From the NCBI GenBank assembly GCA_002753275.1, contig PEAA01000001.1, positions 124,001-188,000 on the forward strand: a DNA stretch of 64,000 nt, given 5' to 3'. Position 1 is the first letter of the stretch. Every line of letters begins with the position of its first letter. The stretch comes from Zetaproteobacteria bacterium. GTDB taxonomy: Bacteria; Pseudomonadota; Zetaproteobacteria; Mariprofundales; Mariprofundaceae. The position numbers and the translations under genes are program-made. Below are positions 11,130-14,551 of this stretch, piece by piece. A model generated the notes under the pieces. The model was not told the DNA's origin. It made no database searches and saw only the letters and a list, made by a program, of their open reading frames with translations.

Positions 11130-11912
11130 ATGCCCCGCTATTTCATGCTTATATTTTTACTTATGATTGGCATGGTTGGCAGTGCCGTCTCCGCTGAAGA
11201 GAGTGCGCAAAATATTATCCATCGTATTTTGCAGCATCGTTTAAGTCAGGGCTTCGAAGTACGCATGAATATTGAGGTATTCGATGCAGAGAACCAGCGC
11301 CAGCAGCCATTGAAGGTTGCGCTTATTGGTCGCTATGTTGAACAACAGCAACAATTGTTGATTCGTGGCATCACGCCTGCCAAGTATACACATCAAATTT
11401 ATGCTGCAGAGGTTGGGAAAAACCAACCTCCAAGAATGTTTCGTCGTTATGGCGTAGAGAATCACAGCGTAGAACCTTTCAACATTGAGTCCCCACTGTT
11501 TGATTCAGGGTTGATCGCCTATGATATGTTGATGCCATGGTGGTATTGGCACGATCAGCAACTTATCGGCAACCAAATGGTTAATGGTCATGACTGTATC
11601 GTGATACAATCGGTAGAACAGCCCTTGCTGATCGGTCAAGAGATTCACCGTGTGATTTCCTATATTGATCGCAAAGAGCTATTCCCTTGGCGTATTGAAA
11701 TTTTTAACAATGAACAGCAACGCCTGCGAACCCTTGAAGTCCAACAAGTGATGCGCCTGGAAAGTGGTGCGCTTACTGCCAAAGCTCTGACAGTCGAACA
11801 ATTCAATCACCAAGTAAGCAAAATATTTATTTACAGTGGTGATGAGCATTATTTGATTCAACCTGAAAGTTTTTCTATACTAGAATCTACACCACAGGAA
11901 GTTCAACCATGA
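11130..11912 (+). CDS. LolA-like outer-membrane lipoprotein-sorting family protein
   Basis: 260 residues from ATG 11130; the frame is open from 11094 but that would add residues before a normal signal peptide (MPRYFMLIFLLMIGMVGSAVSA). The mature part is a predicted half-barrel of the LolA/LolB superfamily: repeated beta strands (EVRMNIEVFDAE, LKVALIGRYVEQQQQLLIRGI, VNGHDCIVIQSV, RVISYIDRKELFPWRIEIFN). Proteins of this kind accompany FtsX-type exporters and carry hydrophobic cargo in the periplasm. It overlaps the next gene by 4 bases. Confidence 0.75.
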   Translation: MPRYFMLIFLLMIGMVGSAVSAEESAQNIIHRILQHRLSQGFEVRMNIEVFDAENQRQQPLKVALIGRYVEQQQQLLIRGITPAKYTHQIYAAEVGKNQPPRMFRRYGVENHSVEPFNIESPLFDSGLIAYDMLMPWWYWHDQQLIGNQMVNGHDCIVIQSVEQPLLIGQEIHRVISYIDRKELFPWRIEIFNNEQQRLRTLEVQQVMRLESGALTAKALTVEQFNHQVSKIFIYSGDEHYLIQPESFSILESTPQEVQP

Positions 11913-12703
11913 AAGCGCGACCTTCAAAAAAGAACATCCACCCTTTCGATGAAATTTCAGGCGCTTGGTGCAATACTGATGCCAGTACTAGCAGCATCAT
12001 GGAATCTGTCAGTTTTGTGACACCGGTCTTAGAGTCTTTCTTCATTCATACCGTCAATGAATCGATCAACACCCTTTCAGGTGAACATACTCCATTGCTT
12101 GAACGCGGAAAATCATTCATTCAAGAGGAGGCCAACCATTCACGCATCCATGGTCTATTTAATGAGCATCTCTTTGCCTACCTCGGTAAAAAACCACCTG
12201 GACTGCAGTTGACCTATTGGGTGCTGAAACAGATTCGCACCAAAGTATCACTCCACTCACGCCTGCTGCTCGCCGCTGCGCTGGAGCATATTGCGGCCGT
12301 ATTATCAAAAGTATATCTGCAAGAGCAGTCCAATATGACCATGACTTCAGATTATGCACAGGCGATGTTTCTCATGCACGCCAATGAAGAGATTGGTCAC
12401 CGTTCCGTTGTATTCGATTTATGGCTCAACCATGGAACTTCCAACATTTTAAGTAGGATGTTGGTCATTGCGCTTATCTTAAGTGGAGGTGCGCTCTATT
12501 TGATCGGTTCATTTCCATGGATTTTATACAAGAAACATATCCATCATTCGAAAACGCACATGATCACGGCCATTTTATTGAGTCTTGGCAACATCGCTTT
12601 CCGCATGCTTCAAGCGCTGTTTGATCGGCGAACCTACTGCGTAATCTACGAACTTTTCAGCTTTATTCGCCCCAACTATCACCCTGATCATCTGATCCAA
12701 TAA
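11909..12703 (+). CDS. predicted metal-dependent hydrolase, di-iron ferritin-like fold (PF10118-like)
   Basis: 264 residues. Alpha-helical protein with carboxylate/His motifs spaced like di-iron oxygenase-type bundles: SFIQEEANHSRIHGLF (about 71-86), ALEHIAAVLSKVY (about 125) and MLMHANEEIGHRSVVFDL type EEIGH motif (about 157-170). Two hydrophobic segments (VIALILSGGALYLIGSFPWI and a later one) suggest membrane association. Annotated in the family as predicted metal-dependent hydrolase; real chemistry is unknown. It is the fourth gene of the ABC exporter operon, overlapping its neighbour by 4 bases, so modification of an exported lipid is a reasonable guess. Confidence 0.7.
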   Translation: MKARPSKKNIHPFDEISGAWCNTDASTSSIMESVSFVTPVLESFFIHTVNESINTLSGEHTPLLERGKSFIQEEANHSRIHGLFNEHLFAYLGKKPPGLQLTYWVLKQIRTKVSLHSRLLLAAALEHIAAVLSKVYLQEQSNMTMTSDYAQAMFLMHANEEIGHRSVVFDLWLNHGTSNILSRMLVIALILSGGALYLIGSFPWILYKKHIHHSKTHMITAILLSLGNIAFRMLQALFDRRTYCVIYELFSFIRPNYHPDHLIQ

Positions 12704-14053: not shown

Positions 14054-14089
14054 TTGATTCGTATGATTGAGTATCAATGGAGGCAAGCC

Positions 14090-14374
14090 ATGAGTAATGA
14101 AGGATTTCACGAACCGATTGATGAACTTTCCGATGACACGCGCAATATGCATCGCGCCATCACCTCTCTGATGGAGGAGTTGGAAGCGGTTGATTGGTAT
14201 AATCAGCGCATGGATGCGTGTAAAAATGATGAGCTAAAGGCGATTCTAAAGCACAACCGTGATGAAGAGAAAGAGCATGCAGCGATGCTTTTGGAGTGGA
14301 TTCGCCGTCAAGACCCAGCCTTTGATCATGAATTGAACGATTATCTTTTTACAGAGAAGCCGCTGTCGCATTAA
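14090..14374 (+). CDS. EncFtn-type ferritin-like protein without cargo-loading tail
   Basis: 94 residues from ATG 14090 (TGGAGG upstream; the longer open frame from 14030 is rejected). It matches the encapsulated ferritin (EncFtn) family closely: HRAITSLMEELEAVDWYNQR, ILKHNRDEEKEHAAMLLEWI, and ending DYLFTEKPLSH. By alignment with the Rhodospirillum rubrum protein from memory, ferroxidase ligands correspond to E30, E60 and H63. EncFtn forms a ring decamer with iron sites at subunit interfaces. The family's C-terminal encapsulin-targeting peptide is absent and no encapsulin gene is nearby, so this is likely a free ferroxidase or iron-handling protein. Confidence 0.88.
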   Translation: MSNEGFHEPIDELSDDTRNMHRAITSLMEELEAVDWYNQRMDACKNDELKAILKHNRDEEKEHAAMLLEWIRRQDPAFDHELNDYLFTEKPLSH

Positions 14375-14375
14375 T

Positions 14376-14429
14376 GAAACGGATGGCCTTGCGCAGATCG
14401 AGGGTTAGATGTGCGAGGTCATCCGTTTC
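14376..14429 (+). terminator. long stem-loop directly after the EncFtn gene
   Basis: GAAACGGAT (14376-14384) pairs with ATCCGTTTC (14421-14429); the stem continues inward with GGCCTTGCG against TGCGAGGTC using wobbles, giving about 17-18 pairs and a loop near 16 bases. No T-run follows, so it may stop decay or pause transcription rather than act as a classic intrinsic terminator. Confidence 0.45.
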
Positions 14430-14551
14430 TGATGTTGAGGCGATGCTTATTTGTTCGTGACCTCATGAAAAATAAGGCAACTGCAAGAAATACCATGCAA
14501 TTTTCTAATTCGATGTTAATCTGCACCATCTTCTTTGACGAGGAGTGTGCA

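What the first reader, a model, noticed from the sequence alone, without database searches (positions are those of the whole stretch)
14090..14374. Encapsulin-type ferritin without capsid or cargo tag
Seen: 94-residue protein matching EncFtn throughout (RDEEKEHAAM, EELEAVDWY) that stops right after YLFTEKPLSH; no C-terminal tag and no encapsulin gene within the window. Known: classical EncFtn is loaded into encapsulins by a C-terminal peptide. Inference: a free iron ferroxidase, possibly tied to the iron-rich lifestyle guessed for this organism. Free EncFtn-like proteins may already be reported in some lineages; I could not check.
Basis: partly seen in the sequence, partly recalled or inferred. 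Interest (0 to 1): 0.6.

Follow-up and report, generated by a model that had tools for sequence, protein, structure and literature searches.

The report
Shell-free ring ferritin, widespread and known
The gene encodes a small iron-oxidising ferritin of a type usually locked inside a virus-like protein shell, but this bacterium and almost all others with this short version have no shell gene, so it probably works free in the cell; the protein type is already described, and the genome survey showing that it goes without a shell is the useful part.

Summary
Observation confirmed. Window 14090-14374 encodes a 94-residue EncFtn-like protein (PF22277, 145 bits) with every ferroxidase residue of R. 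rubrum EncFtn and no GSLK-type cargo tag. Its closest solved relative is N. europaea NE0167 (3K6C, 77% identical, 95 aa). That class is already described as "Non-EncFtn" (He 2016) and "s-FLP" (Eren 2024), so the protein itself is a new member of a known kind.

What the searches add: the genome (93.9% complete, class Zetaproteobacteria) has no family-1 encapsulin, no PF00210 ferritin/Bfr/Dps and only this one EncFtn. None of 78 genomes of the class has an encapsulin. Of 50 named genomes carrying the short form, 48 have none; one of the other two has a shell gene with its own tagged EncFtn beside it. In 398 sampled Pseudomonadota genomes, both tagged EncFtns sit beside a shell gene, while 20 of 22 untagged ones have no shell in the genome, and the other two shells sit beside a tagged peroxidase.

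Eren et al. listed the s-FLP end "LFTDKPIAHE" as a putative targeting peptide. The same segment occurs in tagged EncFtns upstream of their real tag, so it is probably just the end of the domain.

Most likely function: a free cytosolic decameric ferroxidase (inferred, untested).

The parts
14079..14083 (+). Shine-Dalgarno-like GGAGG, 6 bases before the ATG at 14090
   Evidence: read in sequence
14090..14374 (+). untagged (short) EncFtn-like ferroxidase, 94 aa; single copy in the genome
   Evidence: PF22277 145 bits, TIGR04535 135 bits, 3K6C 77% identity, AlphaFold model pLDDT 89.5, best PDB fold match 3K6C
14174..14200 (+). helix-1 ferroxidase segment: E29, E30, E32, W36, Y37 (R. rubrum E31, E32, E34, Trp, Y39)
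   Evidence: alignment to Rru_A0973; E29/E30/E32/Y37 invariant in 103 untagged and 5 tagged proteins
14252..14278 (+). helix-2 ferroxidase segment: H55, E59, E60, E62, H63 (R. rubrum H57, E61, E62, E64, H65)
   Evidence: alignment to Rru_A0973; E59, E60, H63 invariant
14342..14371 (+). C-terminal segment YLFTEKPLSH: end of helix 3 plus short tail; counterpart of the putative s-FLP targeting peptide LFTDKPIAHE of Eren 2024; no GSLK tag follows
14424..14442 (+). weak terminator-like stem downstream (about chance expectation)
   Evidence: 1 found, 0.5 expected

Best explanation
A stand-alone EncFtn. Two-helix subunits pair to build a di-iron ferroxidase site at the dimer interface (E30, E60, H63, Y37), and five dimers form an open ring. 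Because the host has no encapsulin, the ring works free in the cytoplasm, taking up excess Fe2+ and oxidising it to Fe3+ to limit Fenton chemistry. The Fe3+ is released to other ligands rather than stored as a large mineral. Shown: the gene, the intact ligands, the lack of a tag and the lack of a family-1 shell or PF00210 ferritin in the assembly. Inferred from close relatives: decamer, ferroxidase activity, failure to mineralise without a shell. Inferred only: the cellular role.
For: Family and fold. All R. rubrum ferroxidase and entry-site ligands conserved. No shell in own genome, 0/78 of class, 48/50 carrier genomes without one. Where carriers do have an intact shell gene, it has another tagged cargo: EncFtn ending LTLGSLKPERR in L089, DyP-type peroxidase-like protein ending GSLGIGSLKK in L123 and L124. 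Tagged EncFtns in the sample sit beside their shell gene (G222, G308). No conserved gene neighbour across 80 carrier loci, so no operon partner suggests a substitute shell. Tag-truncated R. rubrum EncFtn is an active ferroxidase on its own but precipitates iron; NE0167 crystallises as a decamer (PMC5012862, PMC11202242).
Against: No biochemical data on this protein. R. rubrum EncFtn without its shell is slower and precipitates iron, so a useful free role is not obvious. The assembly is 93.9% complete, so a shell or ferritin could in principle be missed (the class-wide 0/78 makes a missed shell unlikely). Encapsulin families 3 and 4 were not searched, and the family-2 search had silent controls.
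Confidence: 0.78

Rival explanations
1. Cryptic cargo: the conserved end LFT(D/E)KPIAH is an unrecognised targeting peptide and the protein is loaded into a shell not yet recognised (idea floated in Eren 2024).
For: The C-terminal segment is conserved: H94 in 91 of 103 untagged proteins. The review lists it as a putative, uncharacterised targeting peptide.
Against: 0/78 class genomes and 2/50 carrier genomes have a family-1 shell match. The same segment (YLFTEGPIT, YLFTERPI, YLFTEAPIT) is present in tagged EncFtns ahead of the real tag, so it belongs to the domain. In the model, YLF is the last turn of helix 3.
Confidence: 0.06
2. The ring has lost iron work and serves another purpose, for instance as a scaffold, or binding other metals or peroxide chemistry.
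For: Free R. rubrum EncFtn stores no iron. 43 of 50 carriers also have a classical ferritin, Bfr or Dps, so storage is usually covered.
Against: All ferroxidase and entry-site ligands are invariant in 103 untagged sequences; only H55 and E62 (exit site) change, in four sequences. R. rubrum EncFtn shows no peroxidase activity.
Confidence: 0.1
3. Main iron store of this cell: the short EncFtn replaces ferritin by forming mineral with help from another factor.
For: No PF00210 ferritin, Bfr or Dps in this assembly.
Against: 76 of 78 class genomes lack a PF00210 match and most of these also lack EncFtn, so the class evidently manages without either; isolated EncFtn does not mineralise.
Confidence: 0.06

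Closest known systems
NE0167 of Nitrosomonas europaea (PDB 3K6C), the s-FLP type of Eren et al. 2024 / Non-EncFtn of He et al. 2016
   Same: 77% identity over all 94 residues, near-equal length, same ligands, no tag, best sequence and fold match
   Different: Other organism. I found no report of NE0167's biochemistry or shell status; here the genome and class were checked and lack a family-1 shell.
R. rubrum EncFtn Rru_A0973 and H. ochraceum EncFtn (tagged, FLP-TP type)
   Same: Same domain and ferroxidase site, about 60% identity
   Different: They carry a disordered linker and SLGIGSLK tag and work inside a shell. Residue 84 is Thr in 5 of 5 tagged, Asp/Glu in 99 of 103 untagged.
Pyrococcus furiosus EncFtn fusion (5N5E)
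   Same: Same EncFtn fold class
   Different: Fused to the shell protein; only a weak sequence match (E 0.63)
Classical ferritin, bacterioferritin, Dps (PF00210)
   Same: Ferritin superfamily, di-iron carboxylate chemistry
   Different: Closed cage of four-helix subunits; this protein scores below the PF00210 cut-off (13.7 against 24.5 bits)

Membership tests
EncFtn-like domain (PF22277) | Score over the curated cut-off across the domain | tested here: met
   145.1 bits against 27, profile 2-85 of 85
EncFtn-like domain (PF22277) | Ferroxidase ligands E32, E62, H65, Y39 and entry site E31, E34 (R. rubrum numbering) | tested here: met
   E30, E60, H63, Y37, E29, E32 in the window protein
EncFtn-like domain (PF22277) | Two long antiparallel helices plus a short third helix | tested here: met
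   H15-43, H47-74, H76-87; TM 0.87-0.90 to 3K6C, 1.7 A
EncFtn-like domain (PF22277) | Decameric ring with Fe at the dimer interface | not testable with these tools
   inferred from 3K6C and 5DA5
s-FLP / Non-EncFtn | About 95 aa, no long disordered tail, no targeting peptide | tested here: met
   94 aa, ends YLFTEKPLSH
Encapsulin cargo (FLP-TP) | C-terminal GSLK-type targeting peptide | tested here: not met
   absent
Encapsulin cargo (FLP-TP) | Family-1 shell gene nearby or in the genome | tested here: not met
   0 in own genome, 0/78 in class; controls positive
Encapsulin cargo in another shell family | Family-2 shell (PF19307) in genome | tested here: inconclusive
   0/56, but no control genome rang
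Active ferroxidase | Fe2+ oxidation in vitro | not testable with these tools
   needs purified protein

The most novel reading that the evidence does not exclude
Untagged EncFtn rings are the commoner form of this family in Pseudomonadota and form a shell-free iron-oxidation system that evolution keeps apart from encapsulins; in a few Fe(II)-oxidising bacteria, such as this one, the ring is the only EncFtn- or PF00210-type ferritin.
Probability: 0.55. Interest if true: 0.5.

Novelty: new member of a known kind. Interest (0 to 1): 0.36.

Why it matters
The family is named after its shell, and NCBI's model TIGR04535 ('encapsulin-associated ferritin-like protein') passes this shell-less protein, so the name will mislead annotators. 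The survey bears on a question left open in the 2024 review: whether s-FLPs are encapsulated. Genome content says almost never. It leaves a testable puzzle: what use is an open ferroxidase ring that in vitro precipitates iron when it has no shell?

Tried and rejected
Frameshifted or truncated tag: rejected, since the best 80 relatives in other genomes end at about the same place without a tag. Conserved operon partner: none found; the largest sense-strand neighbour family occurs in 5 of 81 loci (a glutathione-reductase-like protein), and a peroxiredoxin-like protein follows in 3, too few to build on. Transfer on phages: no match in 50,697 phage records; 7 plasmid records only. Vertical inheritance in the class: the tree scatters the Zetaproteobacteria rows among Gamma-, Beta- and Alphaproteobacteria, which suggests transfer, but 95 columns cannot resolve it. 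Papers on Zetaproteobacteria and ferritin gave no statement about storage proteins in the class.

Full report
Observation. The open reading frame 14090-14374 on the + strand is preceded by GGAGG six bases before ATG and encodes 94 residues ending YLFTEKPLSH. It matches Pfam EncFtn-like over the full profile (145.1 bits, cut-off 27) and NCBI's TIGR04535 (135.1 bits, cut-off 125). Flanking genes are a YjdM/PhnA zinc-ribbon protein upstream and a DEAD-box helicase downstream (read from its motifs); neither is iron-related.

What it is. The nearest solved structure is NE0167 of Nitrosomonas europaea (3K6C; E 5.6e-45, 77% identity, 95 aa), ahead of the tagged EncFtns of H. ochraceum and R. rubrum. 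An AlphaFold model from 28 window and locus sequences (mean pLDDT 89.5) has helices 15-43, 47-74 and 76-87; its best PDB match is again 3K6C (1.7 A over 90 columns). The R. rubrum ligands E31, E32, E34, Y39, H57, E61, E62, E64, H65 map to E29, E30, E32, Y37, H55, E59, E60, E62, H63 of this protein. In 103 untagged and 5 tagged relatives E29, E30, E32, Y37, E59, E60 and H63 are invariant; H55 and E62 change only in four sequences, which fit the divergent f27 group.

No shell. The genome holding the window (1.86 Mb, 55 contigs, 93.9% complete) has no Linocin_M18/encapsulin match while three control genomes ring, one EncFtn only, and no PF00210 ferritin, bacterioferritin or Dps while all 14 controls ring. 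Across 78 genomes of the class: 0 encapsulins, 5 EncFtns above cut-off, 2 PF00210 ferritins. The class is Zetaproteobacteria, inferred because the EncFtns of three of its members are identical, over the compared stretch, to those of named Zetaproteobacteria/Ghiorsea loci: L002 = L010, L004 = L032, L003 = L053.

Wider survey. A genome-collection scan found at least 534 relatives; the best 80, all short forms, come mostly from Gamma-, Beta- and Alphaproteobacteria. Nearly all end within a few residues of ...YLFTDKPIAH. Of 50 named carrier genomes, 48 have no family-1 encapsulin and 43 have a PF00210 ferritin. The two exceptions: G104 (Thiohalocapsa) has a shell gene with a tagged EncFtn (LTLGSLKPERR) beside it, its short EncFtn lying elsewhere; G102 has a partial shell-like match with an internal stop. 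In 398 Pseudomonadota genomes, 24 have EncFtn above cut-off and 8 an encapsulin above cut-off. The two tagged EncFtns (G222, G308) are next to shell genes. Of 22 untagged, 20 lack a shell; the other two (G166, G181) have shells adjacent to a peroxidase-like protein ending GSLGIGSLKK. This sample includes the window's own family, so 5 of the 22 are Zetaproteobacteria. Fisher tests: p 0.0004 for 3 tagged against 50 named carriers, p 0.022 in the phylum sample alone; carriers do not differ from the 2% baseline (p 0.31). Species are related, so these p values are only indicative, and the 50 carriers were picked for similarity to the window protein.

The putative targeting peptide. Eren et al. 2024 (PMC11202242) list LFTD(E/N)KPIAHE as an uncharacterised putative targeting peptide of s-FLPs and leave their encapsulation open. 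Tagged EncFtns have the same segment (YLFTEGPIT, YLFTERPI, YLFTEAPIT) followed by a linker and the true tag. So the segment is the end of the domain, and with no family-1 shell in the genomes it is unlikely to be a shell-targeting signal there. Untagged and tagged forms differ at residue 84 (Asp/Glu in 99 of 103, Thr in 5 of 5) and at the near-terminal His94 (91 of 103). This His is worth testing as a contact or metal site; that is a suggestion only.

Function. Established for a relative: tag-truncated R. rubrum EncFtn is an active ferroxidase, slower than with its shell, forming precipitate rather than a stored mineral, without peroxidase activity (PMC5012862). The likeliest role here is free cytosolic Fe2+ oxidation or buffering. 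It is not a lineage-wide need: most class members lack it, and the tree hints at gene transfer.

Verdict. The type was described in 2016 and 2024; the genome-wide absence of shells is a useful addition that I did not find stated in the papers searched. Interest moderate to low.

Noticed in passing
class of the window genome (78 genomes): Only 2 of 78 Zetaproteobacteria genomes have a PF00210 ferritin/bacterioferritin/Dps match, although all 14 control genomes ring; how this Fe(II)-oxidising class stores or buffers iron is unclear.
   Followed up: partly
L107-L111, L112-L115: Two further untagged EncFtn groups outside the NE0167-like one: one placed with the tagged proteins in the tree (L107-L111), one very divergent in family f27 (L112-L115, N at 55, K at 62). 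Both lack GSLK tags, so the untagged state may have arisen more than once.
   Followed up: partly
L102 1396-1764: An EncFtn with a long Lys/Pro/Ala-rich tail (122 aa) but no GSLK tag and no encapsulin in the genome.
   Followed up: no
window 14090-14374 against NCBIfam TIGR04535: The model named 'encapsulin-associated ferritin-like protein' accepts this shell-less protein above its cut-off, so automatic annotation will wrongly imply an encapsulin.
   Followed up: yes
window 11909-12703: PF10118 predicted metal-dependent hydrolase (131 bits), three genes upstream of the EncFtn.
   Followed up: no
80 carrier loci: A peroxiredoxin-like gene lies directly downstream of the short EncFtn in 3 loci (e.g. 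L087 6316-6846) and a glutathione-reductase-like gene nearby in 5; weak hint of a link to peroxide stress.
   Followed up: no
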